From Modestobacter roseus (GTDB taxonomy: Bacteria > Actinomycetota > Actinomycetes > Mycobacteriales > Geodermatophilaceae): a DNA stretch of 64,000 nucleotides. A program made the position numbers and the translations under genes. Each line of letters starts with the position of its first letter. Within the stretch, counting starts at the first letter, position 1. The stretch is from NCBI RefSeq assembly GCF_007994135.1, contig NZ_VLKF01000001.1, positions 4,216,001 through 4,280,000 on the forward strand. The letters run 5' to 3'. This document shows positions 17,713 through 51,499 of the stretch, piece after piece. The notes below the pieces were generated by a model. The model had not been told where the DNA came from. It worked only from the letters and a program-made list of their open reading frames with translations, and made no database searches.

Positions 17713-18500
17713 CGCAGCTCCTCCCGCTCCGCCGTCCCGGTTCCCGCGCCGGATCCCGGCCGGTTCTCGGCGCCGGATGCCGGCCGGGTTTCGGCGCCGG
17801 ATGCCGGGCGGGGTTCGGCGCCGAAACCCGGTTCGGGCGCGGGGCGGAGGACGCCGAGGCGCTCCAGCTCGGGGCGGGCGTTGACCGTCAGCACCCGGAA
17901 CAGCAGGACGCCGAGCAGCCCCTCGCCGACCGCCAGCGGCACCTGGGTGACCGCGAAGACGCCGAGGTACTTCAGCGCCGCGCCGACCAGGCCGCTCTCG
18001 GCGTCCGGGAAGGCCAGCGCCAGCTGCAGCGACGTCGTCACGTAGGTGGCCAGGTCGGCCAGCGCCATCGCCGCGAACACCCCGGGCAGCAGCCCGCCAC
18101 CGACGCGGCGCACCAGCCGGTAGGCCCCGTAGCCCACCCACGGCCCGACCACCGCCATCGAGAAGGCGTTGGCGCCCAGCGTGGTCAGCCCGCCGTGGGC
18201 GAGCAGCAGCGCCTGGAACAGCAGCACCACCGTGCCGAGCAGCGCCATCACCGGCGGCCGGAACAGGACGGCGCCGAGCCCGGTGCCCGTGGGGTGGCTG
18301 GAGCTGCCGTTGAACGAGGGCAGCTTGATCGCGCTCAGCACGAAGGTGAACGCGCCGGCCGCGCCCAGCAGCAGCGTCGACTCGGGGTGCTCGCGCACCT
18401 CCTTGACCACGCACCGGGCGCCGTGGACGACGAACGGGGCGGCGGCGACGGTCCAGCCGATGGCGTGCGCCGGCGGGAGGAACCCCTCAGCGATGTGCAT
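17709..18500 (-). CDS. cbiM: Cobalt-binding core subunit with palindromic-repeat C-terminal tail
   Basis: 263 residues. The N-terminus [10 protein letters not shown] supplies the Co(II)-binding Met1-His2 site of CbiM, so the start is fixed. Seven or so helices follow; [18 protein letters not shown] is the second metal-site loop. After the last helix, from about residue 222, the protein continues with four 8-residue repeats of type GAETRPAS, coded by four 24-bp palindromic units (17737-17832). Usual CbiM proteins end close to residue 220-230, so the tail is an addition, predicted cytoplasmic and disordered. The start lies inside the end of cobB (14-base overlap). Confidence 0.93.
17737..17832. 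repeat. 24-bp palindromic units, cluster 1 (4 copies, in cbiM)
   Basis: Four head-to-tail 24-base units (17737-17760, 17761-17784, 17785-17808, 17809-17832). The consensus unit is CGGGTTTCGGCG followed by close to its reverse complement. Read on the minus strand they code the 8-residue repeats at the CbiM C-terminus, ending nine codons or so before the stop. The first unit is the most diverged. Confidence 0.9.
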
Positions 18501-19884
18501 GGTGCGCCCTCTCGGGGAGCCGCGCGGCGGCGGCGACGAAGCGGGAGGCCATCCCAGGGGAACCGGCCCAGTTCAGGTGCAGGTACGAGGCGTGCACGCC
18601 GTCGCTGACGAAGCCCTCGGGGCCGTCGGCGTTCCACTGCCATGCCGGTGACGCTGCCGGCGTCGCCCCGGCGGCCGGGCCGGCGGTGGTGCGGTGGAAC
18701 TCGTGCCCGCGCACCCGGGTGCCGGCCGGGGCGAGCACGCTGTCGGTGAGCGCGACCGCGGCCCGGTAGCCGAGCGTGAGCCGCGGGTGCATCGCCGTCG
18801 TCGTGGGCAGCACGCCGCACATCGGCTCGCCGTCCAGCTCCTGCGACAGGTACAGCAGCCCGGCGCACTCGGCGGCGATCGGTGCACCGGACCGGGCGAG
18901 CTCGGCGATCGCCGTCCGCAGCCCGACGTTGGCGCTGAGCGCGCTGGCGTGCACCTCGGGGAAGCCCCCGCCGACGACCAGCGCGCGGGTGCCCTCCGGG
19001 AGGGCGTCGTCCCGCAGCGGGTCGACGGTCACCACCTCGGCGCCGGCCGCGGCGAGCAGCTCGGCGGTCTCGGCGTAGCCGAAGGTGAACGCCGGCCCAC
19101 CGGCGACGGCGACCACCGGCCGGCCCTCGACCCGGGTGACCTCGGCGGCCGGGTCCCAGGCCTCCCCGGACAGGTCGGGTGCGGTGCGGGCCAGCCGGAG
19201 GACGGCGTCCAGGTCGACGCTGGACTCCACGACCGCGCCCAGCGCGCGCACCGTGCGCACCGCCTCGGCCGACCGCTCGGCCGCCGGCACCAGCCCGAGG
19301 TGGCGGGAGGGGGTGTGCAAGTCCTCGATCCGGCGCACCGCGCCGAGCACCGGTACCCCGGCGGCGCCGAGCGCCTCGCGGAGGATCGCCTCGTGCCGGT
19401 CGCTGCCGACCCGGTTGAGGACGACGCCGCCGATGCGCACCGTCGGGTCGAAGGTGGCGAACCCGTGCACCAGCGCGGCCACGCTGCGGGCCTGTGAGGC
19501 GGCGTCCACGACGAGCACCACGGGGGCCTGCAGGTGCGCGGCGACCTGCGCGGTCGAGCCGTAGCCGGGCTCGACGCTGGCGTGCGCGGCGCCGTCGAAC
19601 AGCCCCATCACGCCCTCGACGACCGCGACGTCGGCGCCCCGGGCCCCGTGCAGGAACAGCGGGGTGATCCGGTCGTCGCCGACCAGCCACTTGTCCAGGT
19701 TGCGGCCCGGGCGGCCGGCGGCGAGGCCGTGGTAGCCGGGGTCGATGTAGTCGGGGCCGACCTTGTGCGGGCTCACGGTGAGCCCGCGGGCGGTCAGCGC
19801 GGCGACCAGGCCGGTGGTGATCGACGTCTTGCCGGCGTTCGACGACGGCGCGGCCACCACGATCCGCGGGATGCGGGTGCTCAC
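18487..19884 (-). CDS. cobB: Cobyrinate a,c-diamide synthase
   Basis: 465 residues. N-terminal P-loop-like [15 protein letters not shown] near residue 10, [13 protein letters not shown], and the C-terminal type-1 glutamine amidotransferase domain with the catalytic cysteine in [13 protein letters not shown] and histidine in RGHEFHR. It amidates the a and c side chains using glutamine. In the aerobic route the substrate is hydrogenobyrinate, in the anaerobic one cobyrinate; CobN in this window suggests the former. GTG at 19884 overlaps cobO's stop. A short acidic-free insert [14 protein letters not shown] lies before the last helix. Confidence 0.95.
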
Positions 19885-20495
19885 CACTCGATCCCCCGTT
19901 GGCCCTTCTGGCCGGCGTCCATCGGGTGCTTGACCTTGGTCATCTGCACGACCAGGTCGGCGGCCTCGACCAACGCCGGCGGGGCGTCGCGGCCGGTGAT
20001 GACGACGTGCTGGCTGCCCGGTCGGTGCGTCAGGGTCTCGACGACGTCGTCGACGTCGACCCAGCCCCACTTCAGCGGGTAGGTGAACTCGTCGAGCACG
20101 TAGAACCGGTGCGCCTCGACGGCCAGGTCACGCTTGATCTGCGCCCAGCCCTCGGCGGCGTCGGCGGCGTGGTCGGTCTCGTCGCCGTGCTTGCGCGACC
20201 ACGACCAGCCCGAGCCCATCTTGTGCCAGACCACCGGGCCGCCCTCACCGGTGGTCTCGTGCACCCGGCCGAGCGCGGTCAGCGCGTTCTCCTCGCCGAC
20301 CTTCCACTTGGCGCTCTTGACGAACTGGTAGACCGCGATCGACCAGCCCTGGTTCCACGCCCGCATCGCCATCCCGAAGGCGGCGGTGGACTTGCCCTTC
20401 ATCTCCCCGGTGTGCACGGCGAGCAGCGGCCGGTTGCGGCGCTGCCGGGTGGTCAGCCCGTCGACCGGGACGGCGGTCACCTGTCCCTGCGGCAC
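19881..20495 (-). CDS. cobO: Cob(I)alamin adenosyltransferase
   Basis: 204 residues, CobO/BtuR/CobA family. The ATP site is HTGEMKGKSTAAFGMA; YVLDEFTYPLKWGW and the C-terminal [16 protein letters not shown] are family signatures. Attaches the 5'-deoxyadenosyl group to the Co(I) corrinoid. GTG at 20495 follows GAGGAGGACCA. A gap of 73 bases with an inverted repeat separates it from the chelatase gene; downstream it overlaps cobB. Confidence 0.95.
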   Translation of the reverse strand: MPQGQVTAVPVDGLTTRQRRNRPLLAVHTGEMKGKSTAAFGMAMRAWNQGWSIAVYQFVKSAKWKVGEENALTALGRVHETTGEGGPVVWHKMGSGWSWSRKHGDETDHAADAAEGWAQIKRDLAVEAHRFYVLDEFTYPLKWGWVDVDDVVETLTHRPGSQHVVITGRDAPPALVEAADLVVQMTKVKHPMDAGQKGQRGIEW

Positions 20496-20547
20496 TGGTC
20501 CTCCTCGCTGGCGCTCGTCGGAACACTGCCGGGCACTGTGCTCATCG

Positions 20548-20569
20548 GTGAGCTCGCGAGCTCGCTCAC
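20548..20569 (-). repeat. Intercistronic inverted repeat between chelatase gene and cobO
   Basis: GTGAGC and GCTCAC arms enclose GAGCTCGCGA, itself part of the 14-base palindrome GAGCTCGCGAGCTC at 20550-20563. It lies just after the chelatase stop inside the operon. It may protect or partly end the upstream transcript; the sequence alone cannot say which. Confidence 0.45.
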
Positions 20570-22689
20570 TAGGCAGCCCTGCTCTCGCGGACGACGCCGG
20601 CGAGCTGGTCGGCGCCGAGCTCCTCCAGCCGCAGCGTCTGCGCGCCCAGCTGGAGGCCCAGGGCGGCGGCCAGCCCGAGCCGCACCGGCCCGGACTCGCA
20701 GTCGACGACGACGCTCGCGACGTCCGCGGTCGCCAGCAGCCCGGCGGCCCGGCGGGCGTCGCCGAGGTGGTCGCCGCCGCGAGCACCGGTGGCCCGGCCG
20801 TCGGTGACGAGGACGAGCAACGGCCGGCGCCGCGGATCGCGCACCCGCTCCAGCCGCAGCGTCTCGTGCGCCCGCAGCAGCCCCGCGGCCAGCGGGGTGC
20901 GGCCACCGGTGGGCAGGCTGGTCAGCCGGGCGGCCGCCGCCTCGACCGACCAGGTGGGCGGCAGGGTCAGCTCGGCGTCGCCGCCGCGGAAGGTGATCAG
21001 GCCGACCTTGTCCCGGCGCTGGTAGGCGTCCATCAGCAGGGAGAGGACGGCGCCCTTCACCGCGGCCATCCGCGAGCGGGCGCCCATCGAGCCGCTGGCG
21101 TCGACGACGAAGAGGACCAGGTTGCCCTCGCGCCCCTCGAGCGTGGCCTGGCGCAGGTCGGCGCGCTCGACCCGCAGGCCGGTGCCGGTGCGGCCGCGAG
21201 CGTGCTGGTGCGGCGCCGCGGCGAGCACGGTGTCGACCAGGTGCAGCCGGGTCACGCTGCCCTCGGGCCGGCGGGAGCCGACCACCCGGCCGCGCTCGCT
21301 GCGCGCCCGGGACCGCCGGCCGGCCGCGCCCGCGCCGGTGCCGGGCACCTCCAGCCGCTGCACCCGGAACGGCGCATCGGGGGTGACGGCCGCCTTCTCC
21401 GGTGCCGGGGCGGCGTCGGTGTGCCCACCGCCCTCACCCCGCGGCGCCGTCGTCGGCTCGCCGTCCCCGGGGTTCGGCGCCGAACCCCGGCCGGGTTCCG
21501 GCGCCGAATCCCGGCCGGGTTCCGGCGCGGAATCCTGGCCGGGTTCCGGCGCCGGATCCTGGCCGGTGGAGTCCGGGCCGCCGGACGGCGGTGGGGGAGG
21601 GCCGCCACCGTCGCCGTCGGGGCCGCCGTCGGTCGGGTCGGTGCCCTCGGGCGGGGTCGGGTCGTCGTCCGGTGCCGTGTCGGGCCGGGAGTCCTCGAGT
21701 GCCTGCTCCAGCGTGTCCTCGTCCAGCCCAGGGGCGTCGAAGGGGTTGCGCCGCCGGCGGTGCGGGAGGGCGAGCCGGGCGGCGACCCGGACGTCGTCCT
21801 CGGTGACGTCGGTGCGCCCCGCCCAGGCGGCGTGCGCGATCGCGGCGCGGGCGGTGACCAGGTCGGCGCGCAGCCCGTCGACGTCGAAGGCGGCGCAGAC
21901 GCTGGTCACCTGGCGCAGCGCGGCGTCGCTCAGCACCACCTGCGGCAGCAGGGCGCGGGCCGCGGCGATCTGGCCGGCCAGCTCCCGCTCGGAGGAGGCC
22001 CAGGCGGCGGCGAAGCCGGCCGGGTCGGCGTCGTAGCCGAACCGGCGGCGGACCACCTCGGCGCGCAGGTCGGCGTCCCGCGGGGCGGCGACCTCGACGG
22101 TGAGGCCGAACCGGTCCAGCAGCTGGGGGCGGAGCTCGCCCTCCTCCGGGTTCATGGTGCCGACCAGCAGGAACCGCGCCGCGTGCTGCACCGAGACGCC
22201 CTCGCGCTCGACGTAGGCCCGGCCCAGTGCCGCGGCGTCGAGCAGCAGGTCGACCAGGTGGTCGTGCAGCAGGTTGACCTCGTCCACGTACAGGACGCCG
22301 CGGTGCGCCCCGGCCAGCAGCCCGGGCTCGAAGGACTTCACGCCCTCGGTGAGTGCACGCTCCAGGTCCAACGACCCGACCAGCCGGTCCTCCGAGGCGC
22401 CGACCGGCAGCTCGACGAGCTTCGCGGGCCGGGTCACCGACGGGGAGGCGGGGTCGTGCGGGCCGTCCGGGCACTCCGGGTCGGGGGCGGCGGGGTCGCA
22501 GGCGAAGCGGCAGCCGGCGACGACGTCGACCGGCGGCAGGACGGCGGCCAGGGCGCGCACCGTCGTCGACTTCGCCGTGCCCTTCTCGCCGCGCACCAGC
22601 ACCCCGCCGACGGCGGGGGAGACGGCGTTGAGCAGCAGCGCCAGTCGCATGTCGTCCATGCCGACGACGGCGCCGAAGGGATAGGTCAT
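20569..22689 (-). CDS. Chelatase AAA+/VWA subunit (ChlI-ChlD fused; probable cobaltochelatase partner of CobN)
   Basis: 706 residues. AAA+ domain at 1-330: Walker A RGEKGTAKSTT near residue 35, a cysteine cluster GCRFACDPAAPDPEC near 60-75, Walker B GVLYVDEVNLL, sensor GTMNPEEGELRPQLLDRF. A low-complexity proline/acid linker (about 335-450) contains four 8-residue repeats of type DSAPEPGR (375-406) coded by palindromic units. The C-terminal von Willebrand A domain has the MIDAS motif VVDASGSMG near 530 and TDGRATG. The layout is that of the I and D subunits of magnesium/cobalt chelatases in one chain. First gene after the B12 riboswitch, supporting cobalt rather than magnesium insertion. Confidence 0.88.
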   Translation of the reverse strand: MTYPFGAVVGMDDMRLALLLNAVSPAVGGVLVRGEKGTAKSTTVRALAAVLPPVDVVAGCRFACDPAAPDPECPDGPHDPASPSVTRPAKLVELPVGASEDRLVGSLDLERALTEGVKSFEPGLLAGAHRGVLYVDEVNLLHDHLVDLLLDAAALGRAYVEREGVSVQHAARFLLVGTMNPEEGELRPQLLDRFGLTVEVAAPRDADLRAEVVRRRFGYDADPAGFAAAWASSERELAGQIAAARALLPQVVLSDAALRQVTSVCAAFDVDGLRADLVTARAAIAHAAWAGRTDVTEDDVRVAARLALPHRRRRNPFDAPGLDEDTLEQALEDSRPDTAPDDDPTPPEGTDPTDGGPDGDGGGPPPPPSGGPDSTGQDPAPEPGQDSAPEPGRDSAPEPGRGSAPNPGDGEPTTAPRGEGGGHTDAAPAPEKAAVTPDAPFRVQRLEVPGTGAGAAGRRSRARSERGRVVGSRRPEGSVTRLHLVDTVLAAAPHQHARGRTGTGLRVERADLRQATLEGREGNLVLFVVDASGSMGARSRMAAVKGAVLSLLMDAYQRRDKVGLITFRGGDAELTLPPTWSVEAAAARLTSLPTGGRTPLAAGLLRAHETLRLERVRDPRRRPLLVLVTDGRATGARGGDHLGDARRAAGLLATADVASVVVDCESGPVRLGLAAALGLQLGAQTLRLEELGADQLAGVVRESRAA
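21468..21563. repeat. 24-bp palindromic units, cluster 2 (4 copies, in chelatase linker)
   Basis: Four exact-length tandem units (21468-21491, 21492-21515, 21516-21539, 21540-21563). Minus-strand reading gives SAPEPG-type octapeptides, a different frame of the same DNA unit from that used in cbiM. Confidence 0.9.
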
Positions 22690-22741
22690 GAGCAGACCAC
22701 GGGTCCTCTCCCCGGGTGTCCACGCCCGGAGGTGGCAGGAG

Positions 22742-22836
22742 GCGACGGCGGGAGTTCCTGACTCACCGGCTCGGGAGCCGGCTCACAGTGGCGGGACCGC
22801 GCCGGAGTCGCACCGGGCTTCCTCCACTGCCGTCGC
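22742..22836 (-). promoter_or_regulatory. Cobalamin riboswitch upstream of the nine-gene B12 operon
   Basis: On the minus strand the closing stem P1 is GCGACGGC (22829-22836) with GCCGTCGC (22742-22749), eight perfect pairs. Inside, in order, are GCCCGGTGCGACTCCGGC (22801-22818), the conserved GCCACTGTGA (22783-22792) and AGTCAGGA (22756-22763), the hallmarks of B12 aptamers. After the aptamer a stem CTCCGGG/CCCGGGGAG lies over the region just before the start codon, with no T-tract, so control is probably of translation. When adenosylcobalamin is plentiful the operon should be off. Confidence 0.93.
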
Positions 22837-27192: not shown

Positions 27193-27193
27193 G

Positions 27194-34244: not shown

Positions 34245-34802
34245 ATGCGCCTGCCCGGCCGTTACGACGGCGTCGCCCGGCCGATCGTCACCTACGGCAG
34301 CAACCCCGTGCTGCACCGACCCTGCGTCCCGGTCACCGTGTTCGACCGGGCGCTGCGGCACCTGGTGCTGGACATGTTCGCCAGCATGCAGGCCGCCGAC
34401 GGCGTGGGCCTGGCGGCCAACCAGATCGGGGTCGACGCGCGGGTCTTCGTCATCGACTGCCCGGACGCGCACGGTGAGGACGTCGCCGGCTACGTGGTCA
34501 ACCCGGAGCTGACCGTCCTGCCGCCGGGCGACGACGAGCCGGCGACGGAGACCACCGAGGAGGGCTGCCTGTCGGTGCCCGGCCCCTACGCCGAGCTGCC
34601 GCGCGCCTTCCGGGCGCGGGTCGACGGCGTCGACGTGCACGGCCAGCCCACCTCGATCGAGGCGACCGGGATGGCCGCGCGCTGCCTGCAGCACGAGGTC
34701 GACCACCTCAACGGCACGGTCTACGTCGACCTGCTGCCCGAGGAGCTGCGCGAGCGGCTGCTGGCCGAGGCCGCCGGCCCGGAGGGCGAGCTCCCGGCGT
34801 GA
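34245..34802 (+). CDS. def: Peptide deformylase
   Basis: 185 residues. All three motifs: GVGLAANQIG (Gln60), EGCLSVP (Cys108) and QHEVDH (His150, Glu151, His154), which bind the catalytic metal. Removes the formyl group from nascent N-terminal methionine. It heads a run def-cobL-relay ORF-cobM, an unusual pairing of an essential housekeeping enzyme with B12 genes; GTGA joins it to cobL. It may be one of two def genes in the genome, as is common in actinobacteria. Confidence 0.95.
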   Translation: MRLPGRYDGVARPIVTYGSNPVLHRPCVPVTVFDRALRHLVLDMFASMQAADGVGLAANQIGVDARVFVIDCPDAHGEDVAGYVVNPELTVLPPGDDEPATETTEEGCLSVPGPYAELPRAFRARVDGVDVHGQPTSIEATGMAARCLQHEVDHLNGTVYVDLLPEELRERLLAEAAGPEGELPA

Positions 34803-36001
34803 CCGTGACCGTCGTCGGGGTCGGCGCGGACGGCTGGGAGGGGCTCTCCCCGGCGGCGCAGCGGGCCGTCGCGGCCGCCCAGGTGCTGCGCGGCAGCGCC
34901 CGGCAGCTCGACCTCGTGCCGCCGTCGGTCGCCGCCGAGCGGGTGCCCTGGCCCTCGCCGATGGCGCCGGCGCTCGCCGCGCTGATCGCCGACCACCCCG
35001 GCCGGCGGGTCGTGGTGCTGGCCAGCGGCGACCCGATGCTCTCCGGCGTCGGCACCTCGCTGGTGCGGCTGTTCGGCGCGGACGCCGTCGAGGTGGTGCC
35101 GCACCCGTCGTCGGTGACGCTGGCCTGCGCCCGGCTGGGCTGGGCGCTGGAGGAGACCACCGTCGTCTCCGTCGTCGGCCGGCCGGTGTCGCTCGTCCTC
35201 CCGCACGCCACGCCGGGCCGGCGGCTGCTGGTGCTCGGCTCGGACACCCGGACGCCGGCCGACGTCGCCGCGCTGCTGGCCGGAGCCGGGTACGGCGGCA
35301 GCCGGCTCACCGCGCTGGCCCAGCTCGGCGGCCCGGCCGAGCGCCGGTTCACCGGCACGGCCGCCGGATGGTCGCACCCGGAGACCGACCCGCTGGTGCT
35401 CACCGCGGTCGAGGTGGGCGCCGACCCGGGCACCGTGCCGCTGCCCACCGTGCCGGGCCTGCCCGACGAGGCCTACGCCTCCGACGGGCAGCTGACCAAG
35501 CGCGACGTCCGGGCGGTGACGCTCGCCCGGCTCGCCCCGCTGCCCGGCCAGCTGCTCTGGGACGTCGGGGCGGGAGCCGGCTCGATCGGCATCGAGTGGA
35601 TGCGTGTGCACCCCACGTGCCGGGCGGTCGCCGTGGAGGCCGACCCGGTGCGCGCGGCCCGGATCGCGGAGAACGCGGAGCGGCTCGGCGTCCCCGACCT
35701 GCGGGTCGTGCACGGCCCGGCACCCGACGCGCTGGTCGACCTGCCCGGTCCGGACGCCGTCTTCGTCGGTGGCGGGGCGACCACCCCGCTGCTGCTGGAT
35801 GCGGTCTGGGCGGCGCTGCCCCCCGGCGGCCGGCTGGTGGTGAACGCGGTGACGGTGCAGAGCGAGGCGGTGCTCGCCGAGTGGCACGGCCGCGTCGGCG
35901 GCTCGCTGACCCGGCTCTCGGTGGCGCACGCTCAGCCGGTCGGCGGCTTCACCGGCTGGAAGTCCGCCATGCCCGTGACGATCTGGAGCGTGACCCGATG
36001 A
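34799..36001 (+). CDS. cobL: Precorrin-6Y C5,15-methyltransferase (decarboxylating)
   Basis: 400 residues, CbiE and CbiT domains in one chain. CbiE part (1-195): VGVGADGWEGLSPAAQRAV, SGDPMLSGVGTSLVRLFG. CbiT part (210-400): TKRDVRAVTLARLAPLPGQ, SAM motif DVGAGAGSIGIEWMR, FVGGGATTPLLLDAVW. Methylates C5 and C15 and decarboxylates the acetate chain at C12. GTG overlaps def's stop; its own stop lies in ATGA with the relay ORF at 35998. Confidence 0.95.
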   Translation: MTVTVVGVGADGWEGLSPAAQRAVAAAQVLRGSARQLDLVPPSVAAERVPWPSPMAPALAALIADHPGRRVVVLASGDPMLSGVGTSLVRLFGADAVEVVPHPSSVTLACARLGWALEETTVVSVVGRPVSLVLPHATPGRRLLVLGSDTRTPADVAALLAGAGYGGSRLTALAQLGGPAERRFTGTAAGWSHPETDPLVLTAVEVGADPGTVPLPTVPGLPDEAYASDGQLTKRDVRAVTLARLAPLPGQLLWDVGAGAGSIGIEWMRVHPTCRAVAVEADPVRAARIAENAERLGVPDLRVVHGPAPDALVDLPGPDAVFVGGGATTPLLLDAVWAALPPGGRLVVNAVTVQSEAVLAEWHGRVGGSLTRLSVAHAQPVGGFTGWKSAMPVTIWSVTR

Positions 36002-36099
36002 CCCCCCTCCCGGCTTTCGGCGCCGAACCCCGGCCGGGTTTCCGCGCCGAAACCCGGCCGGGTTTCCGCGCCGAAACCCGGTGTGGGGGAGCCGCATGA
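35998..36099 (+). CDS. 33-codon relay ORF made of palindromic repeats between cobL and cobM
   Basis: ATG at 35998 overlaps the cobL stop (ATGA) and its TGA at 36097-36099 overlaps the cobM ATG (ATGA). Between them the peptide is MTPLP, then three octapeptides of type GFRAETRP coded by cluster 3, then CGGAA. It looks like an inserted repeat cassette that has kept the start-stop coupling at both ends. The peptide itself probably has no function; translating it would carry ribosomes from cobL to cobM. No ribosome site precedes its ATG, while GGGGGAG precedes the cobM ATG. Confidence 0.55.
   Translation: MTPLPAFGAEPRPGFRAETRPGFRAETRCGGAA
36011..36082. repeat. 24-bp palindromic units, cluster 3 (3 copies, cobL-cobM junction)
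   Basis: Units 36011-36034, 36035-36058 and 36059-36082. The last two are near-identical, with one central base changed (TTTCCGCGCC), so they formed recently by duplication. Each can fold as a hairpin in the mRNA. Confidence 0.9.
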
Positions 36100-36836
36100 C
36101 CATCCACTTCATCGGGGCGGGGCCCGGTGCCGCGGACCTGGTCACCGTGCGGGCGGCGCGGATCATCGCGGCGAGCCCGGTCTGCCTGTACGCCGGTGCC
36201 CTCGTGCCCCGCGAGCTGCTGGCCACCGCGCCGGCCGGTGCCCGGCTGGTGGACACCGCCGACCTGGACCTCGACCAGATCACCGCCGAACTGGTCGCCG
36301 CGCACGAGGCCGGGCTGGACGTCGCCCGGCTGCACTCCGGCGACCCGTCGGTCTACAGCGCGATGGCCGAGCAGATGCGCCGGCTGGACGCGGCGGGGGT
36401 GCCCTACGACGTCGTCCCGGGCGTGCCGGCGTTCGCGGCCGCGTCGGCCAGCCTGAAGCGGGAGCTCACGGTGCCGGGGGTGGCGCAGACCGTCGTGCTG
36501 ACCCGGACGTCGGCCCGCTCGACGCCGATGCCGCCGGGGGAGGAGCTGGCCGCCTACGCCGCCACCGGGGCGACGCTGGTGCTGCACCTGGCCGTGCAGC
36601 GCATGGACGCCCTCGCCCCGGAGCTGGCCGCGCACTACGGCGGCGACTGCCCGGTCGCGGTGGTCGCCAAGGCCAGCCGGGACGACGAGCTGGTGCTGCG
36701 CGGCACGCTCGCCGACATCGCCCAGCAGGTCACCGACGCCGGGGTGCGGCGCACCGCCGTCGTCATCGTCGGCCGGGTGCTGACCGCCGGGGAGTTCCCG
36801 GACAGCCACCTCTACTCGACGACCCGATGCCGTTAG
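36096..36836 (+). CDS. cobM: Precorrin-4 C11-methyltransferase
   Basis: 246 residues. FIGAGPGAADLVTVRAARI at the N-terminus, HSGDPSVYSAMAEQM, VPGVPAFAAASASL and RTSARSTPMP are family motifs (CobM/CbiF). Adds the methyl group at C11 of precorrin-4. ATG 36096 has GGGGGAG seven bases upstream, and an upstream in-frame start at 36081 would fall in the repeat cassette. The stop overlaps the converging cbiD stop by four bases. Confidence 0.96.
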   Translation: MTIHFIGAGPGAADLVTVRAARIIAASPVCLYAGALVPRELLATAPAGARLVDTADLDLDQITAELVAAHEAGLDVARLHSGDPSVYSAMAEQMRRLDAAGVPYDVVPGVPAFAAASASLKRELTVPGVAQTVVLTRTSARSTPMPPGEELAAYAATGATLVLHLAVQRMDALAPELAAHYGGDCPVAVVAKASRDDELVLRGTLADIAQQVTDAGVRRTAVVIVGRVLTAGEFPDSHLYSTTRCR

Positions 36837-44850: not shown

Positions 44851-46536
44851 GTGACGAGCCCCCCGCTGACCGATGCGCTGCAGGCGCTGCGTGACGAGGT
44901 CGCCGCCGCGCCGCTCGGGCTGGCCACCCCGGGCCGTGACGCCGCCGCTCGCACCGCCGCCGAGGTCGTGCACCAGGTCGACGACTACCTGCTGCCCCGG
45001 CTGCGCGACCTGGACGCCCCGCTGCTGGCCGTCGTCGGCGGCTCCACCGGCGCCGGGAAGTCGACCCTGGTCAACAGCCTGCTGCGGGCGCACGTCACCG
45101 CCCCCGGCGTGCTGCGCCCGACCACGCGCGCGCCCGTGCTCGTCTGCGCTCCCGAGGACCGGGCGGCCTTCGCCGGTGACCGGGTGCTGCCCGGCCTGGC
45201 CCGCACCACCGGCGGCGTGGCCGGGCCAGGTGGGCTGCAGCTGGTGACGCACGAGGGTCTGCCCGCCGGCCTGGCGCTGGTCGACGCCCCCGACGTCGAC
45301 TCGGTGGTGGAGGCCAACCGCGACCTCGCCGGCCAGCTGCTCGCCGCCGCCGACCTGTGGGTCTTCGTGACGACGGCGGCCCGCTACGCCGACGCCGTCC
45401 CCTGGGACCTGCTGCGGACGGCGCAGGAGCGGGGCACCGCGCTGGCGGTCGTGCTGGACCGGGTGCCCACCGAGGCCGTGGCGGAGGTGGCCGGCGACCT
45501 CGCCGGCATGCTCGCGCGCGGCGGGCTGGGCGCGGCCCGGCTGTTCGTGGTGGAGGAGCGGCCGCTGACCGACGGGTTCCTGCCCGAGGACCAGGTCGGC
45601 CCGCTGCGCGCCTGGTTGCACGGGCTCGCCGCCGACGCAGAGCAGCGCGCCGCCGTCGTCCGGCAGACCCTCGCCGGGGCGCTGGCCAGCCTGGACGAGC
45701 GGGTCGCCGACGTCGAGGCCGGGGTGGTCGAGCAGGCCACCGCCGCCGAGGCGCTGGAGACCGCCGCCGACGCCAGCTACGCCCGCGCCCGCGCCGCGGT
45801 CGACGAGGGGGTGGGCAACGGCAGCCTGCTGCGCGGGGAGGTGCTCTCCCGCTGGCAGGAGTTCGTCGGCACGGGGGAGTGGATGCGCTCCCTGCAGGGC
45901 TCGGTGGGCCGGGTGCGCGACCGGCTCACCGCCTCGCTGACCGGCCGGCCCACCCCCGCCGACTCGCTGCAGGGCGCCCTGGAGTCGGGGGTCGAGCTGC
46001 TGCTGCGCGCGGAGGCCGACGCCGCGGCCGAGCGCACGGTCACCAGCTGGCGGACGCTGCCCGGCGGTCCGGCGCTGCTCGCCGGCCGGGCGGCCGAGCT
46101 GGAGGGCGTCTCCCCGGGCTTCACCGGCGCGGCCGCCGATGCCGTCCGCGACTGGCAGGGCGCGGTGCTCGAGCTGGTGCGCGCCGAGGGGGCCGGCAAG
46201 CGGTCGCGCGCCCGCCTGCTGTCCTGGGGCGTCAACGGCGCCGGTGCGGTGGTGATGGTCGCGGTGTTCGCCTCGACCGCGGGCCTGTCCGGCGCCGAGG
46301 TCGCCATCGCCGGCGGCACCACGGCGCTGGGGCAGCGGGTGCTGGAGGCGGTGTTCGGCGACGCCGCCGTCCGGGAGCTCGCCGCCCGGGCCCGCGCCGA
46401 CCTCGATGCCCGCGCCGACGCGCTGCTCCGTGACGAGCAGGCTCGCTTCGCCGAGCTGCTCGCCGGCGCCGCGCCCGCGCCGGGTGCGGCCGGGCGGCTG
46501 CACACCGCCGTCGCCGCCCTGGCGGCTGCCCGGTGA
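44851..46536 (+). CDS. Dynamin-like GTPase, first of a tandem pair
   Basis: 561 residues. G1 motif VVGGSTGAGKSTLVNSLL (63-75), switch threonines RPTTRAPVLV, G3-like DAPDVDS and G4-like VLDRVP, which is degenerate (no N/TKxD). The middle and C-terminal parts are helical with coiled segments, and a hydrophobic stretch AGAVVMVAVFASTAGLSGAEVAIAGG (in two halves) near residue 465. This fits the actinobacterial YfjP/IniA-type dynamin-like proteins, which work as pairs in membrane remodelling or stress defence. Followed by its partner with a GTGA overlap. Confidence 0.87.
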   Translation: MTSPPLTDALQALRDEVAAAPLGLATPGRDAAARTAAEVVHQVDDYLLPRLRDLDAPLLAVVGGSTGAGKSTLVNSLLRAHVTAPGVLRPTTRAPVLVCAPEDRAAFAGDRVLPGLARTTGGVAGPGGLQLVTHEGLPAGLALVDAPDVDSVVEANRDLAGQLLAAADLWVFVTTAARYADAVPWDLLRTAQERGTALAVVLDRVPTEAVAEVAGDLAGMLARGGLGAARLFVVEERPLTDGFLPEDQVGPLRAWLHGLAADAEQRAAVVRQTLAGALASLDERVADVEAGVVEQATAAEALETAADASYARARAAVDEGVGNGSLLRGEVLSRWQEFVGTGEWMRSLQGSVGRVRDRLTASLTGRPTPADSLQGALESGVELLLRAEADAAAERTVTSWRTLPGGPALLAGRAAELEGVSPGFTGAAADAVRDWQGAVLELVRAEGAGKRSRARLLSWGVNGAGAVVMVAVFASTAGLSGAEVAIAGGTTALGQRVLEAVFGDAAVRELAARARADLDARADALLRDEQARFAELLAGAAPAPGAAGRLHTAVAALAAAR

Positions 46537-48119
46537 GGCGCCGGGAGACCCCGCTCGCCGACCGGCTCGGTGCGCTGCGCGAGGCGGTCGAGGTCGCCGA
46601 GGGGCGGCTGGAGGTGCCCGAGGTCGGCGCCGCGCGGGCACTGCTGGCCAAGGCCGGCGCGCGGGAGGCGCTCGGCGACGCCACCGTCGTCGCGCTCGCC
46701 GGCGCGACCGGCAGCGGCAAGTCGACGCTGTTCAACGCGCTCACCGGCGCCGAGGTGAGCACCCCGGGCGTGCGCCGGCCGACCACCGGCATCGCGCACG
46801 CCAGCGTCTGGGGCGCCGAGGGCGCCGACCGGCTGCTGGACTGGCTGGAGGTGCCCCGCCGGCACCGGGTCGACGGCGGTGACCCGGCGCTGGACGGCCT
46901 GGTGCTCCTCGACCTCCCCGACCACGACAGCGTGCGGGTCGAGCACCGGCTGGAGGTCGACCGGCTGGTGCAGCTGGTCGACGTGCTGGTCTGGGTGCTC
47001 GACCCGCAGAAGTACGCCGACGCCGCCGTCCACTCCCGCTACCTGGCGCCGCTGGCCGGGCACGCCGGGGTGCTCGTCGTCGTCCTCAACCAGGTCGACC
47101 GGCTCGACGACGCCGCCGCCCGCGCCTGCCTCGCCGACCTGCGCGGCCTGCTGGACGCCGAGGGGCTCACCGGCACGCCGCTGCTGGCCACCGCCGCACG
47201 CACCGGGTACGGCCTGCCGGAGGTGCGCGCGGAGCTCGCCCGCCGGGTCGGTGCCCGCCGCGCCGCCACCGACCGGCTGGCCGCCGACGCCCGCGGTGCC
47301 GCCGCGGCGCTCGCCGCGCACTGCGCGCCGGACGCCGGCCCCGACCGCAGCCGTGACCGGGACGAGCGGGACGGGCTGGTCGGGGCGCTCGCCGACGCGG
47401 CCGGGGTGCCCGCGGTGACCACGGCCGTGGAGCTGTCCGCCCGCCGCCGCGGCGCGGAGCACACCGGCTGGCCGGTGCTGCGCTGGACGTCGAAGCTGCG
47501 CGCCGACCCGCTGCGCCGGCTGCACCTGGGCTCCGAGGCCGCCCGCAGCTCGCTCCCGCCGGCCGGCGCCGTGCAGCAGGCGGCGCTGGGCGCGGCGCTG
47601 CGCCGGGCCCGCGACGAGGCCGGCGCCGGGCTGCCGCAGGCGTGGCGCGACGAGCTGCGCCGCACCGCGGAGCTGTCCCAGGAGCGGCTGGCCGACCGGC
47701 TGGACCGCGCGGTGGCCGGTACCGACTTCGGCCCGCAGCGGACGCCGCTGTGGCAACGCGCCGTCGGCGGGCTGCAGTGGGTGCTGGCGTTGGTGGCCCT
47801 CGCCGGGGCGCTGTGGCTGCTCGGCCTGGTCGGACTGGGTCTGCTGCAGCTGGACGACGTCGTGCCGCTGCCCCGGGTGGAGGGCATCCCGCTGCCGACC
47901 CTGCTGCTGGTCGGTGGGCTGCTGTCGGGGTTGCTGCTCGCGCTGGTGGCCCGGCCGCTGGTGCGCGCCGGGGCGCGGCGACGCGGCCGGCTGGCCCGGC
48001 GGCGGCTGCTGGACCGGGTGGCCGAGGTCGCCGACGACGAGGTGCTCGGACCGCTGGGGGAGGCGCGCGCCGACCACGACCGGTTCTGCGCCGCCGTCGG
48101 CCGCGCCGGCGCCGGCTGA
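46533..48119 (+). CDS. Dynamin-like GTPase, second of a tandem pair, with two transmembrane helices
   Basis: 528 residues. G1 ALAGATGSGKSTLFNALTG (55-70), switch RRPTTGIAHA, G3 LLDLPDHDS, G4 VLNQVDRLDD: a more complete GTPase than its partner. After a helical stalk two transmembrane helices at about 405-425 and 450-470 (WVLALVALAGALWLLGLVGL and TLLLVGGLLSGLLLALVA) anchor it. The pair should form a heterotypic membrane-acting machine like DynAB of Streptomyces. Cluster 4 of the palindromic repeats lies ten bases past the stop. Confidence 0.88.
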   Translation: MRRRETPLADRLGALREAVEVAEGRLEVPEVGAARALLAKAGAREALGDATVVALAGATGSGKSTLFNALTGAEVSTPGVRRPTTGIAHASVWGAEGADRLLDWLEVPRRHRVDGGDPALDGLVLLDLPDHDSVRVEHRLEVDRLVQLVDVLVWVLDPQKYADAAVHSRYLAPLAGHAGVLVVVLNQVDRLDDAAARACLADLRGLLDAEGLTGTPLLATAARTGYGLPEVRAELARRVGARRAATDRLAADARGAAAALAAHCAPDAGPDRSRDRDERDGLVGALADAAGVPAVTTAVELSARRRGAEHTGWPVLRWTSKLRADPLRRLHLGSEAARSSLPPAGAVQQAALGAALRRARDEAGAGLPQAWRDELRRTAELSQERLADRLDRAVAGTDFGPQRTPLWQRAVGGLQWVLALVALAGALWLLGLVGLGLLQLDDVVPLPRVEGIPLPTLLLVGGLLSGLLLALVARPLVRAGARRRGRLARRRLLDRVAEVADDEVLGPLGEARADHDRFCAAVGRAGAG

Positions 48120-48129
48120 GCAGCACTCC

Positions 48130-48177
48130 CAGCTTTCGGCGCCGAAACCCGGACAGCTTTCGGCGCCGAAACCCGGA
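48130..48177. repeat. 24-bp palindromic units, cluster 4 (2 copies, intergenic)
   Basis: Two identical tandem 24-base units (48130-48153, 48154-48177), each beginning CAGCTTTCGGCG and ending CGCCGAAACCCGGA. They fill the space between the converging stops of the GTPase gene (48119) and the VOC gene (48183) and can fold into hairpins on both strands, so they may also end transcription. Confidence 0.9.
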
Positions 48178-48182
48178 GGGGG

Positions 48183-48581
48183 TCAGTTCGTCGGGGGCAG
48201 CCGGGACGGCGGGTGCTCGGCCAGGCAGAAGAGGTTGCCCTCCGGGTCGGCGAGCGTCGTCCACTGGGCCCAGGGCAGCTCGTCGAGCACGTCCCACCGG
48301 TGGGTGGCGCCCAGGGTCACTGCCCGGGCGACCTCCTCCTCGCGGCACCCCCAGGGCACGGTGAGGTCCAGGTGCTGGGTCTGCCGCTCCGGGCGGGGGC
48401 CGGTGCGCCGCCGGAAGAACATGCCGAAGCCGTCGGGCTCCCGGGCGGACACGAAGACGAGGCCGCCCTGCTCACCGACCACTGTGCCACCGAGCAGGTC
48501 GGCCCAGAACGACGCCAGTGCCCGTGGTGAGGCCGCCTCGACGTTCACCGAACCCAGGCTGATCGAGGTCCCGGCAGGCAC
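48183..48581 (-). CDS. VOC-superfamily protein
   Basis: 132 residues. Double beta-alpha-beta VOC fold: GSVNVEAASPRALASFWADLL, TQHLDLTVP, WTTLADPEGNLFCLAEHP with candidate metal residues His and Glu. Function unknown. GTG 48581 lies seven bases after a -10 TAGCTT (48589-48594), a leaderless layout, which favours it over the upstream in-frame ATG at 48617. Confidence 0.84.
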   Translation of the reverse strand: MPAGTSISLGSVNVEAASPRALASFWADLLGGTVVGEQGGLVFVSAREPDGFGMFFRRRTGPRPERQTQHLDLTVPWGCREEEVARAVTLGATHRWDVLDELPWAQWTTLADPEGNLFCLAEHPPSRLPPTN

Positions 48582-48620
48582 AGACCCGAAGCTACGTTCG
48601 TGCGTCTGGGGGGACAACCG

Positions 48621-49904
48621 TCATCTGTCGTGGACCGGCTGCAGCTGCCCGTCCGGTGCCGGTGCGCTGCCTGCGGCGGAGCGGCGGCGGTGCAGGGTGA
48701 GGCCGGCCACGGCAGTGAGCGCCAGGACGATGACCACCGCGCCGTAGACCTCGGCGGTCGTCTCCAGGCCCACGGAGTTTGCGGCGACCCCGGCCGCGAT
48801 CGCCGGCAGGCTGAACGCCAGGTAGCTGACGGTGAAGACCGCGGAGATGAGCGCCGCGCGCTGGCCCGGGTCGACGCCGGCGGTCACCGTGGCCATCGCA
48901 CCGAGGAAGGCACCGCCGAAGCCGAACCCGGAGACCACCGCGGCCACGAAGAACAGCGCCAGCGACCCGGTCCACAGCGCGGTGATCGTGCCGGCGACGC
49001 CGGTGGCGAAGACGAGCGCGCCCACGGTCATCCCCCGGGCGGGGGCGAGCGACCGCATGGTCAGGGACCCGATCACCCCGGTGCCGTTGAGCGCCAGGAT
49101 CGGCAGCGCGCCGGTGACGTGGTCGGTGACCCCGAAGACGGTGGCGGCCAGCGAGGGGCTGAGGGATGCGTAGAGCCCGCCGAGCGACCAGGTGGCGATG
49201 AGGCAGGGGAGCACCAGCAGGAACGCCCGCCGCTGCGACGGGGGCACGTGCACGCTCGGCACCAGCGACGCCGCCAGCCCCGGCCGCCGGGGGGAGGTCT
49301 CGGGCAGGAACACCACCCAGGCGGCGGCGGCCAGACACAGCACGGTGAGCACCCCGAACACCCAGTCGGTGGGGGAGGGGACGAACTGCACGGCCAGGCC
49401 CGCGCCCACCGCGCCGAGGGAGAGGCCCAGCCCCGGCCCCGCGGAGTTGACCAGCGGGCCCAGCGGCCGGTCCGCGCGCTGGGTGTCCAGCAGCGCCGCG
49501 CCGAACGCGGCGGTCAGCGCGCCGGTGGCGAACCCCTGCACGACCCGGGCGACCAGCAGCCACCCGACGCCGTCGGCGGCCCAGAACAGCACCATCGACG
49601 CCGCCTCGACCAGCAGCGCCACCGCCAGCACCGGCCGCCGCCCGACGTGGTCGGACAGCCCGCCGACGACGAGCAGGGAGAGCAGCAGCGCGAAGGCGTA
49701 GACACCGAAGACGACGGTGAGCGTGCCCGAGCCGAAGCCGAACTCCTCCGCGTACACCCGGTACAGCGGTGAGGGGACGCCCGAGGCCGCCAGCATGAGG
49801 ATCAGCAGGACGGCGACCGACCAGAAGGCGGCCGGGCGGGCGAGCGTTCCTCGGGGCACGAACCGGTGCAAGGCCCGACCAGCCGGTCCTGTTCCCGGGG
49901 TCAC
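48621..49904 (-). CDS. Major facilitator superfamily transporter
   Basis: 427 residues, twelve helices. Motif A GGLSDHVGRRPVL between helices 2 and 3, SAGPGLGLSLGAVGAGLA in helix 5 (drug-antiporter-like motif C form). PLYRVYAEEFGFGSGTLTVVFGVYAFALL fits (in parts) the actinobacterial MFS efflux group. Substrate unknown; position after cobIJ raises the chance of a B12-linked compound, but drug export is equally likely. GTG at 49904 overlaps the stop of the micro-lipoprotein ORF. Confidence 0.85.
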   Translation of the reverse strand: MTPGTGPAGRALHRFVPRGTLARPAAFWSVAVLLILMLAASGVPSPLYRVYAEEFGFGSGTLTVVFGVYAFALLLSLLVVGGLSDHVGRRPVLAVALLVEAASMVLFWAADGVGWLLVARVVQGFATGALTAAFGAALLDTQRADRPLGPLVNSAGPGLGLSLGAVGAGLAVQFVPSPTDWVFGVLTVLCLAAAAWVVFLPETSPRRPGLAASLVPSVHVPPSQRRAFLLVLPCLIATWSLGGLYASLSPSLAATVFGVTDHVTGALPILALNGTGVIGSLTMRSLAPARGMTVGALVFATGVAGTITALWTGSLALFFVAAVVSGFGFGGAFLGAMATVTAGVDPGQRAALISAVFTVSYLAFSLPAIAAGVAANSVGLETTAEVYGAVVIVLALTAVAGLTLHRRRSAAGSAPAPDGQLQPVHDR

Positions 49905-49996
49905 CCGGTCAGCACGCCGATCTCGGTGCACCCGCCCACGGAGGACCCGCACCCGGTCAGCACCGTCCCGAGCGTCAGCAGCAGGACGGCGCGCAC
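49901..49996 (-). CDS. 31-residue lipoprotein-like ORF between cobIJ and MFS gene
   Basis: GTG at 49996, four bases after the cobIJ stop; stop TGA overlaps the MFS start (GTGA). The whole peptide is a lipoprotein signal: R, hydrophobic core AVLLLTLGTVL, lipobox LTGC, then a short tail GSSVGG-C-TEIGVLTG with a second cysteine seven residues on. If processed, only about 16 residues would remain on the lipid. It may be a remnant of a longer lipoprotein or a real micro-lipoprotein; the overlaps on both sides argue that it is translated. Confidence 0.45.
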   Translation of the reverse strand: MRAVLLLTLGTVLTGCGSSVGGCTEIGVLTG

Positions 49997-49999
49997 GAC

Positions 50000-51499
50000 T
50001 CAGCCCGGGTAGCGGCGGCTGGTGAACACCCGGCCGGACGGCGTCACCCGGGTCTGGGTCGAGCCGATCAGCAGCAGGCAGCGCATGTCGACCGTCTCCG
50101 GGTCCAGGTCGGCCAGGGTCGTCACCCGCACCGACTCCTCCGCACCCCCGACGTCCCGGCCGACGACTACCACGGTGTCGGGGTCGCGGACGTCCAGCAG
50201 CGCCTTCTGGGCCTCGGCCAGCTGGTGCGGCCGGGCCTTGGAGCGCGGGTTGTAGAGGGCCAGCACCAGGTCGGCCGACGCGGCCGCGCGCAGCCGGTCG
50301 AGCACGACGTCCCAGGGCTTGAGGACGTCGGAGAGGCTGATCACCGCGAAGTCGTGCCCGAGCGGGGCGCCCACCCTCGACGCGACCGCCTGTGCCGCGG
50401 TGAGCCCGGGCAGCACCCGCACCTCGACGTCCGGGAAGCTCTCCGCCGCCACCTCCAGCACCGCCGCGGCCATCGCGAAAACCCCGGGGTCGCCGCTGGA
50501 GACCACCGCCACGCGGCGGCCGTCCCGGGCCAGCTGCAGGGCCGCGGCGGCGCGCTCGACCTCGACCCGGTTGTCGCTGGGGTGCTTCACCTGCCGCGGG
50601 TTGGCCGGCACGCGGTCCAGGTAGGGGCCGTAGCCGACCAGGTCGTCGGCCTCGGCCAGCGCCTCGGCGACCTCCGGCGTCGTCCAGGCGCGCTTGCCCG
50701 GGCCGAGCCCGACGACGGCGACCTCACCCGCCGTGCCAGGTTTCGGCGCCGAAACCTGGCCGGGTTCCGGCGCCGAAACCGGGGAGAGGAGGCTGGGCAG
50801 CAGGGCGAGGGAGAAGTACGGCACCGTCTCGGGGTCGACGTCGGCCAGCGGGGCGACCCGTTGCCGGTCGGTGGTGGCCCGCTCCACGTAGTACGCCCGG
50901 TCGAGCACCCCGGCGGCGTCGAACGCCTCCCGGACGTTGCCGAACGTGCGGCCGAGCTTCAGCACCGCCGCGGAGTCGGTGGTGGCCAGCCACTCGGCGA
51001 GCTCGTCGGCGGGCAGCGTGCCGGGCAGCACGGTGAGCACCTCGTCGCGCTCGACCAGCGGCCGGCCGAGCACCGCGGCGGCACCGCTGACGCTGGTCAC
51101 GCCCGGCACCACCTCGGTCGGGTAGCGGTGCGCGAGCCGCTTGTGCATGTGCATGTAGGAGCCGTAGAAGAACGGATCGCCCTCGGCCAGCACGACGACG
51201 TCCCGGCCGGCGTCCAGGTGCGCGGCCAGCCGCGCGGCGGCGGCCTCGTAGAACTCGTCGATCGCGCCCTGGTAGCCGCCGGGGTGGTCGGTGGTCTCGG
51301 TGGTGACCGGGTAGACCAGCAGCTCCTCGACCTGCCCGGGGCGCAGGTAGGGCGCGGCCAGCCCGCGGGCCACCGACCGGCCGTGCTGCGCGGCGTGGAA
51401 CGCGACGACGTCCGCGGCGCCGATCAGCCGGGCCGCCTTGACCGTCACCAGCTCCGGGTCGCCGGGCCCCAGCCCGACCCCGTACAGCCGCCCGTTCAT
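50000..51499 (-). CDS. cobIJ: Fused precorrin-2 C20- and precorrin-3B C17-methyltransferase
   Basis: 499 residues. CobI half 1-235: YGVGLGPGDPELVTVKAARL, AEGDPFFYGSYMHMH, VVPGVTSVSGAA. CobJ half from about 256: VVGLGPGKRAWTTPEVAEAL, SSGDPGVFAMAAAVLE, LYNPRSKARPHQL. The linker at 238-254 is built of two octapeptides (SAPEPGQV and SAPKPGTA in this frame) coded by cluster 5. The fusion is known in actinobacteria; the repeat linker is the odd part. Adds methyls at C20 and C17 with ring contraction. ATG 51499. Third gene of cobG-cobH-cobIJ. Confidence 0.95.
   Translation of the reverse strand: MNGRLYGVGLGPGDPELVTVKAARLIGAADVVAFHAAQHGRSVARGLAAPYLRPGQVEELLVYPVTTETTDHPGGYQGAIDEFYEAAAARLAAHLDAGRDVVVLAEGDPFFYGSYMHMHKRLAHRYPTEVVPGVTSVSGAAAVLGRPLVERDEVLTVLPGTLPADELAEWLATTDSAAVLKLGRTFGNVREAFDAAGVLDRAYYVERATTDRQRVAPLADVDPETVPYFSLALLPSLLSPVSAPEPGQVSAPKPGTAGEVAVVGLGPGKRAWTTPEVAEALAEADDLVGYGPYLDRVPANPRQVKHPSDNRVEVERAAAALQLARDGRRVAVVSSGDPGVFAMAAAVLEVAAESFPDVEVRVLPGLTAAQAVASRVGAPLGHDFAVISLSDVLKPWDVVLDRLRAAASADLVLALYNPRSKARPHQLAEAQKALLDVRDPDTVVVVGRDVGGAEESVRVTTLADLDPETVDMRCLLLIGSTQTRVTPSGRVFTSRRYPG
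50737..50784. repeat. 24-bp palindromic units, cluster 5 (2 copies, CobI-CobJ linker)
   Basis: Units 50737-50760 and 50761-50784. The first is nearly a perfect 24-base palindrome (CAGGTTTCGGCG and CGCCGAAACCTG). In the minus frame of cobIJ they read SAPEPG/SAPKPG. Confidence 0.9.

What the first reader, a model, noticed from the sequence alone, without database searches (positions are those of the whole stretch)
17737..50784. Dispersed 24-bp palindromic repeat, open in all six frames, living inside and between cobalamin genes
Fifteen units in five tandem clusters: 17737-17832 (x4), 21468-21563 (x4), 36011-36082 (x3), 48130-48177 (x2), 50737-50784 (x2). The unit is CGGGTTTCGGCG plus close to its reverse complement, always exactly 24 bases, i.e. 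eight codons. The consensus reads through without a stop in every frame on both strands, and two different frames are in use: GAETRP-type in CbiM and the cobL-cobM relay ORF, SAPEPG-type in the chelatase and CobIJ. That lets it enter genes without breaking them, like the palindromic elements of Rickettsia, but it is shorter and expands in tandem. Four of five clusters touch B12 genes. No transposase is nearby, so it would need a helper elsewhere or spread by slippage and gene conversion.
Basis: partly seen in the sequence, partly recalled or inferred. Interest (0 to 1): 0.85.

Follow-up and report, generated by a model that had tools for sequence, protein, structure and literature searches.

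The report
Swappable tandem palindromes at gene ends
A soil actinobacterium carries dozens of small tandem arrays of a 24-base palindrome, mostly parked just behind the stop codons of ordinary genes, and its relatives carry different palindromes, sometimes at the very same gene ends, which suggests a little-studied kind of REP-like mobile hairpin.

Summary
The window has 15 units of a 24-bp palindrome (consensus CCGGGTTTCGGCGCCGAAACCCGG) in five tandem arrays at the stated places; the 4.5-Mb genome has 51 places at ≤3 mismatches, reversed control 0.

The interpretation needs changing. It is not a B12-gene element and not mainly a gene-entering one. Of 27 arrays examined, 21 are intergenic, none lies between divergent genes, and 16 of 21 start ≤13 bp from a stop codon (null 14%), behind a C-rich spacer. 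Six are inside genes, in linkers or C-terminal tails. Six-frame openness is unremarkable (86% of random palindromes).

No Y1 (REP-type) transposase is found in 23 genus genomes. The family is nearly confined to this Modestobacter-like genus and patchy there. Relatives carry at least six other palindromic or hairpin repeats; at 9 of 26 compared array sites some relative has one of these.

Best reading: a RAYT-less, REP-like, dispersing 3'-end hairpin family that expands locally in tandem and shares re-used gene-end positions with rival families. New variant of a known kind. Copying mechanism and RNA function are inferred, not shown.

The parts
17737..17832 (-). array of 4 units, in frame in the C-terminal tail of CbiM (gene 17709-18500, minus strand); frame GAETRP
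   Evidence: of 8 relatives aligned, G004 has the same family there, G022 a different tandem palindrome (by eye), six have none
21468..21563 (-). array of 4 units in the linker of the ChlI-AAA/VWA chelatase (gene 20569-22689, minus strand); frame SAPEPG
   Evidence: the scan finds another family in this linker in 7 of 10 relatives; G022 (own type, decayed), G004 and G020 (other palindromes) by eye only
36011..36082 (+). array of 3 units between cobL (34799-36001) and cobM (36096-36836), 9 bp behind the stop
   Evidence: in 8 of the 10 relatives the two genes overlap as ATGA or GTGA and the site is empty, in 2 (G020, G021) it holds another insert; folds as one long hairpin, z -6.85
48130..48177 (.). 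array of 2 identical units between convergent genes (46533-48119 plus, 48183-48482 minus), 10 and 5 bp from the two stops
   Evidence: RNA fold z -2.9; not comparable, because the right flank was not found in any of the ten relative regions
50737..50784 (-). array of 2 units in the linker between the two methylase domains of CobIJ (gene 50000-51499, minus strand); frame SAPEPG
   Evidence: shared with G004, absent in the other seven relatives aligned
51511..51538 (.). relic of a different palindrome family (GGCAGAAATGGCCATTTCTGCC type, 3 mismatches in 20) between cobIJ and the next gene, where relatives carry two further families

Best explanation
This is a nearly genus-restricted family of REP-like dispersed palindromes. 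The unit is a 24-bp palindrome in tandem blocks of 1 to 4. Shown: it is dispersed, sits within 13 bp of a stop codon in most cases, is not found at divergent junctions in the part examined, is patchy among species, and shares some gene-end positions with unrelated palindrome families in relatives. Inferred: a block is copied from one gene end to another by a process that needs no REP/IS200-type (Y1) transposase, then gains and loses units by slippage or unequal exchange. Inferred: most surviving copies lie at gene ends because there the hairpin is harmless, or useful as a two-way RNA 3'-end structure (termination or protection of mRNA). Linkers and C-terminal tails are the coding places that tolerate it.
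For: Copy number far above control. Position: 21 of 27 arrays intergenic, 0 at divergent junctions, 16 of 21 at ≤13 bp from a stop (null 14%, P 2e-10, distances taken by hand). Other families in relatives behave alike: 43 intergenic clusters with a called stop, median 11 bp from it, 35 at ≤20 bp (most of these loci were chosen because they hold the repeats). C-rich spacer between stop and array (67% C against 46% behind 128 other stops), weaker in other families (53% against 44%). Empty sites at cobL-cobM and, for other families, at sites A and C. Units within an array are more alike than between arrays (3.15 against 3.69 mismatches, P 0.002), with a weak first/last-unit signature (P 0.03). 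No Y1 transposase in 23 of 23 genomes. Strong predicted RNA hairpins in the four arrays folded, z -2.9 to -6.9. G004 has the same family at 13 of 24 compared sites, yet same-site arrays are hardly more alike than others (3.65 against 3.91 mismatches, P 0.08). Another repeat family in some relative at 9 of 26 own-array sites.
Against: No compensatory covariation strong enough to show selection for an RNA stem (same-unit pairing P 0.18 in own arrays and 0.30 in sisters; only the first and last units of own arrays reach P 0.01-0.05; outer-arm pairing 0.41 and 0.08; junction pairing none). No run of T follows the arrays (by eye), so they are not textbook terminators. 14 of the 21 intergenic arrays lie between co-directional genes, some probably co-transcribed, where termination would harm. 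Hairpins at own-array sites in the three relatives without this family in number exceed background only weakly (9 of 38 against 13%, P 0.05; intragenic sites L023, L027, L033 left out). No helper or copying enzyme was found, and no fixed target-site duplication.
Confidence: 0.6

Rival explanations
1. Purely selfish or neutral palindromes: they land anywhere, and purifying selection leaves copies only just behind stops and in linkers.
For: Weak covariation; several families that differ from species to species; linker and tail insertions in frame.
Against: Copies start ≤13 bp from stops far more often than uniform placement in intergenic DNA predicts (16 of 21 against 14%), and a C-rich spacer recurs; tolerance alone does not predict either.
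Confidence: 0.25
2. DNA-level binding sites of a nucleoid or topology protein (as BIMEs are recalled to bind gyrase or IHF), kept for chromosome organisation.
For: The central CGGCGCCG is 97-100% conserved over 118 units while arm positions vary (units were picked by similarity to the consensus, which inflates this); the short A/T runs lie about one helical turn apart (read from the sequence); tandem 24-bp register.
Against: The core is found at 0-2 places in 16 of 23 species of the genus, which does not suit a core organiser; most conserved positions are G/C in a 76% G+C genome; arrays track stop codons and are absent from the 36 divergent junctions examined.
Confidence: 0.12
3. Vertical inheritance with loss only: arrays were in the genus ancestor, were lost in most lineages, and do not move.
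For: 13 of 24 compared sites are shared between G000 and G004, which lie in different clades (P about 5e-25 under random placement, with hand-entered counts).
Against: Same-site arrays are hardly more alike than other pairs (P 0.08); other families occupy some of these positions; cobL-cobM is empty in 8 of 10 relatives and filled here.
Confidence: 0.15
4. One reading: an element adapted to enter B12 genes, mobilised by a RAYT elsewhere.
For: Four of five window arrays touch B12 genes; 5 of 27 arrays lie in this 1.4% of the genome; six arrays are in frame in genes.
Against: 22 of 27 arrays lie outside the window and no B12 gene was recognised beside them; 0 of 23 genomes have a Y1 transposase match; 86% of random palindromes of this make-up are also stop-free.
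Confidence: 0.03

Closest known systems
REP / BIME / REPIN elements (PMC3733652 abstract and passages, PMC3686654 abstract, PMC12306157 passages, PMC3116915 search listing only)
   Same: Short dispersed palindromes, mainly downstream of genes, a share of them within about 15-20 nt of stops, several families, patchy between species, clusters and dimers including tandem ones, some inside genes.
   Different: No GTAG or CGTC tag, no Y1 transposase match in any of 23 genomes, direct head-to-tail 24-bp register without spacer. Copy number is tens (reported for some Stenotrophomonas classes too). I saw no account of different families at orthologous gene ends in what I read of these papers.
Yeast mitochondrial GC clusters (PMC4478555, passages read)
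   Same: Short palindromic mobile DNA, several families, rapid turnover, merging and shuffling of units, copying mechanism unsettled.
   Different: Mitochondrial; [quoted passage not shown]
Rickettsia palindromic elements (recalled; only a search listing seen)
   Same: Palindromic repeats that can sit in frame inside genes.
   Different: Recalled as about 100-150 bp and largely gene-inserted; here 24-bp units, 21 of 27 arrays extragenic.
Hairpin-cluster intrinsic terminators (PMC8355165, abstract and one section read)
   Same: Clusters of hairpins shortly behind stops; a poly-U trail reported as not necessary.
   Different: That paper concerns terminators found by hairpin prediction and RNA-seq, not one repeat family spread through a genome; no transcript data exist here.

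Membership tests
REP (repetitive extragenic palindrome) | short (20-40 bp) palindromic repeat dispersed in the chromosome | tested here: met
   51 places at ≤3 mismatches, control 0
REP (repetitive extragenic palindrome) | mainly extragenic, downstream of genes | tested here: met
   21 of 27 arrays intergenic, 0 divergent, 16 of 21 at ≤13 bp from a stop
REP (repetitive extragenic palindrome) | unpaired GTAG or CGTC tag at one end | tested here: not met
   the consensus is a full palindrome with neither motif (units, profile; by inspection)
REP (repetitive extragenic palindrome) | cognate RAYT (Y1_Tnp) for the GTAG type | tested here: not met
   0 of 23 genus genomes (18 at least 90% complete); 5 of 14 control genomes positive
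MITE | terminal inverted repeats with a fixed-length target-site duplication | tested here: inconclusive
   duplicated ATGACC at cobL-cobM, longer duplications in other insertions there (G021, G012), none clear at other sites looked at; read by eye
Rickettsia palindromic element | about 100-150 bp, mostly in-frame insertion in ORFs (recalled) | tested here: not met
   24-bp units; 6 of 27 arrays intragenic
Intrinsic terminator | G+C-rich hairpin close behind a stop | tested here: met
   z -2.9 to -6.9 for the four arrays folded of 27, one of which (50737) is intragenic; distances
Intrinsic terminator | U-run directly after the hairpin | tested here: not met
   30-base flanks of the 27 arrays show no T-run (read by eye)
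Intrinsic terminator | transcription stops there | not testable with these tools
   no RNA data
CRISPR | unique spacers between repeats | tested here: not met
   units abut with no spacer

The most novel reading that the evidence does not exclude
A bacterial palindrome-exchange system: certain gene ends and linkers act as docking sites at which unrelated 22-30 bp palindromes are put in, tandemly expanded and swapped in place, as whole cassettes, by a mechanism without any Y1 transposase, so that position is inherited while sequence turns over. It would be a chromosomal counterpart of yeast mitochondrial GC clusters.
Probability: 0.2. Interest if true: 0.85.

Novelty: new variant of a known kind. 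Interest (0 to 1): 0.6.

Why it matters
REP elements are understood mainly through RAYT transposases, in Proteobacteria above all. Here an actinobacterial genus keeps several such families with no RAYT match, and orthologous gene ends in different species can carry unrelated palindromes. If confirmed, the system offers a natural experiment that separates selection for 'a hairpin here' from selection on sequence, and it asks what copies a 24-bp palindrome with no known enzyme. It also warns that gene-end repeats, linkers and C-terminal tails in such genomes can be palindrome insertions rather than conserved protein.

Tried and rejected
RAYT/IS200-type helper: no Y1_Tnp match in the own genome or in the 23 genus genomes; I did not search for other transposase classes, so the helper question is open. 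RNA-stem covariation: no convincing excess for same-unit, outer-arm or junction pairing. Complementary flanks around arrays: none, although two of the four folds suggested it. B12 specificity: not borne out by the neighbours elsewhere, but the local excess in the window stays unexplained. Stop-free design: rejected. A fixed target-site duplication: none seen.

Weak spots. Pattern GCGCTTTCGCGCGAAAGCGC gave 0 of 23; it did not describe the repeat I meant, and one search replaced it. One search's reversed control is not clean (2+2 in G004, 3+1 in G001, against 8+10 and 5+2), because the reversed word is itself a near relative of the repeat. In one search the 5 matches of the own genome are its own 24-bp repeat at 3 mismatches, not the GGTACC family. 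One search failed and was redone, which holds 20 of 23 genomes (G007, G010 and G014 lacked the genes or enough of them). In one search, five intragenic rows of the CATGTT type at one conserved coding place (L057, L061, L063, L069, L072) look like chance matches; they are among the 71 clusters and 25 intragenic rows but not among the 43 intergenic ones; 3 further intergenic clusters had no called stop. The printout was cut in the middle (sites L025 and L026); for those I used. In one search cluster numbers were counted by hand from capped listings (G004 showed 50 of its 53 places) and about 5000 gene ends were assumed; the hairpin background was not cleared of repeat families. Genes were called with my own codon-usage script, so starts and distances are approximate. 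Sites A-D were picked because relatives have palindromes there.

Literature. RPE papers seen only as a listing. Searches for a prior description in Modestobacter or Geodermatophilaceae listed none that I recognised; term look-ups in two genome papers (PMC3035280, PMC9686282) showed only CRISPR repeats. Subscription papers are not held.
Full report
Observation. The 15 units are present at the five places given, 24 bp apart within each array (arrays also). Shuffles of the window give 0.04 core matches against 13. The window lies in a 4.5-Mb genome (C1:4,216,001-4,280,000), which has 51 places within 3 mismatches of CCGGGTTTCGGCGCCGAAACCCGG and none of the reversed control. I read 186 kb around other hits, which with the window makes 250 kb. 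That gave 27 arrays, 66 units, 37 spacings of 24 bp and 2 of 23 bp. One further listed array (4,472,549) was not fetched, and the listing is capped. Five of the 27 arrays lie in the window, which is 1.4% of the genome; I have no explanation for this local excess.

Organism. A scan for two exact tandem cores in the named genome collection hit Geodermatophilaceae bacterium URHA0031 (4 loci) and Modestobacter altitudinis (1 locus) and nothing else (the tool may leave out the window's own genome), so the genome is probably Modestobacter-like. In 112 family genomes the core at ≤2 mismatches exceeds 3 places only in this genus (57, 53, 45, 21, 14, 10 and 6 places in seven species; 0-2 in the other 16) and in one genome of another genus (7 places, another layout).

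Where arrays sit. With my own gene caller (240 junctions), 21 of 27 arrays are intergenic: 14 at co-directional junctions, 7 at convergent ones, 0 at the 36 divergent ones. Sixteen of 21 start ≤13 bp from a stop, where uniform placement gives 14%. The stretch between stop and array is 67% C, against 46% behind 128 other stops. Six arrays are in genes: the C-terminal tails of CbiM and of a VTT-domain protein, and linkers of the chelatase, of CobIJ, of an ABC transporter fusion and of an acyltransferase. Random placement would put 24 in genes. Being stop-free in six frames is shared by 86% of random tandem palindromes of that composition.

Relatives. A CobL+CobM tree of 20 of the 23 genus genomes places the window genome beside G021 (96/95) in a group of eight whose other seven members have 0-1 copies; in the other main clade G004, G008, G001 and G022 have the repeat while G003, G009 and G015 have 0-1. 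Relatives have other palindromes: GGCCAAAGTCGCGACTTTGGCC (41 in G017, 33 in G019, 30 each in G018 and G005), CACCAAAATGGCCATTTTGGTG (48 in G002, 33 in G019, 30 in G016), the GGCAGAAATGGCCATTTCTGCC and GGCCATGTTGGCCAACATGGCC types (seen in fetched regions only, not counted genome-wide), GGCTTTCGGTACCGAAAGCC with a 23-bp tandem register (28 in G011, 17 in G013, 13 in G004), and a CGCGCTTTCGCGCG hairpin repeat (18 places in G004, reversed control 4). The control column first betrayed one of them. In the relatives' loci, 35 of 43 intergenic clusters with a called stop lie ≤20 bp from it, median 11.

Same place, other sequence. I compared 26 own-array sites with at least one relative (22 by a joined query; 4 in the window; the site at 48130 could not be aligned). 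G004 has the same family at 13 of the 24 sites at which it could be compared. Those arrays are nevertheless hardly more alike than non-orthologous ones (3.65 against 3.91 mismatches, P 0.08). At 9 of 26 sites some relative has another repeat family, in two of them (L022, L033 in G004) beside the same family. Examples: at the uracil-DNA glycosylase gene end (L035), G017 has the TCGCGA type, G004 the CAGAAA type, G006 an unrelated long hairpin, G021 nothing clear. The DUF559 gene flanked on both sides by arrays here is flanked on both sides by the CGCGC repeat in G004. Two of the three exact CGCGC places in G021 are at own-array sites. Four further sites, A-D, were chosen because relatives have palindromes there, so they are not an unbiased sample; each shows at least two families. 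At site D, inside a gene, six species match the TCGCGA or the TGGCCA palindrome at the same offset (G016 and G020 at 4 mismatches in 20), five of them with the same total length between flanks (82 bp; G019 has 91). Against this, hairpins of any kind at own-array sites in G017, G006 and G021 exceed the background of gene ends only weakly (9 of 38 against 13%, P 0.05), and many sites are simply empty.

Insertion borders. At cobL-cobM the genes overlap as ATGA or GTGA in 8 of 10 relatives; here the array splits the overlap and ATGACC stands on both sides. G021 and G012 have other inserts there with longer duplications. At other sites looked at, no duplication is clear (by eye). This pattern may reflect selection for keeping both the stop and the start rather than a transposase signature.

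How it works. Units within an array are more alike than between arrays (P 0.002), which fits local slippage, and there is a weak first/last-unit signature (P 0.03), which fits copying of whole blocks. Covariation in the arms is weak, so an RNA stem is not shown to be selected, and the flanks are not complementary. The four arrays that I folded nevertheless fold strongly as RNA, the repeat is symmetric on both strands, and most arrays hug stops, which suits a two-way 3'-end element. Hairpin clusters without U-runs have been reported as terminators (PMC8355165, abstract and one section). Co-directional junctions such as cobL-cobM argue for mRNA protection or uncoupling rather than termination there. 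The copying agent is unknown: no Y1 transposase match in 23 genomes, other classes not searched.

Known kinds. It works like a REP element and fails two defining tests of the tagged REPs (tag, RAYT). CGTC REPs are also said to lack a dedicated transposase apparently (PMC3733652 abstract), so 'RAYT-less' alone is not new. In what I read of PMC3733652 (abstract, passages), PMC12306157 (passages), PMC3686654 (abstract) and PMC4478555 (passages) I saw no case of different families at orthologous gene ends; I did not read these papers whole. Yeast mitochondrial GC clusters (PMC4478555) are the closest analogue in behaviour.

Verdict. Real, genome-wide and not mainly about B12; a new variant of REP-like palindromes with an unusual comparative pattern. 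Interest 0.6.

Noticed in passing
window 60118-60194 (+) and 22752-22824 (-): Two cobalamin riboswitch matches above the Rfam gathering score.
   Followed up: no
window 54218-54256: 2-copy 20-bp tandem repeat GCGCGTTCTTTTTAGTTTCC at 100% matches, unusually A/T-rich for this genome, upstream of the called gene at 54337.
   Followed up: no
L016:4418-5486: A DUF559 gene is flanked by arrays on both sides; its orthologue in G004 is flanked on both sides by a different hairpin repeat.
   Followed up: partly
L065 2218-2293, L067 2316-2391, L069 16523-16598, L063 2693-2768: Two copies of a palindrome 54 bp apart at a syntenic place: both copies change together between species while the spacer between them looks alignable in three of the four (by eye).
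   Followed up: partly
G004 C1:208924-209041, 1364353-1364438, 1470275-1470350, 4006336-4006421: Mixed arrays: the 24-bp repeat and the 23-bp GGTACC repeat side by side at 4 of 8 clusters of the latter (positions, counted by hand; test).
   Followed up: partly
G017 site C: In some relatives a palindrome lies directly behind the apparent start codon of cobIJ, which would give an in-frame N-terminal extension, read by eye.
   Followed up: no
G083 (another genus of the family): Seven places of a related palindrome (core at 2 mismatches), two pairs of them 33 bp apart.
   Followed up: no
window 17737-50784: Five of 27 arrays in 1.4% of the genome: a local excess around the B12 cluster without explanation.
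   Followed up: partly
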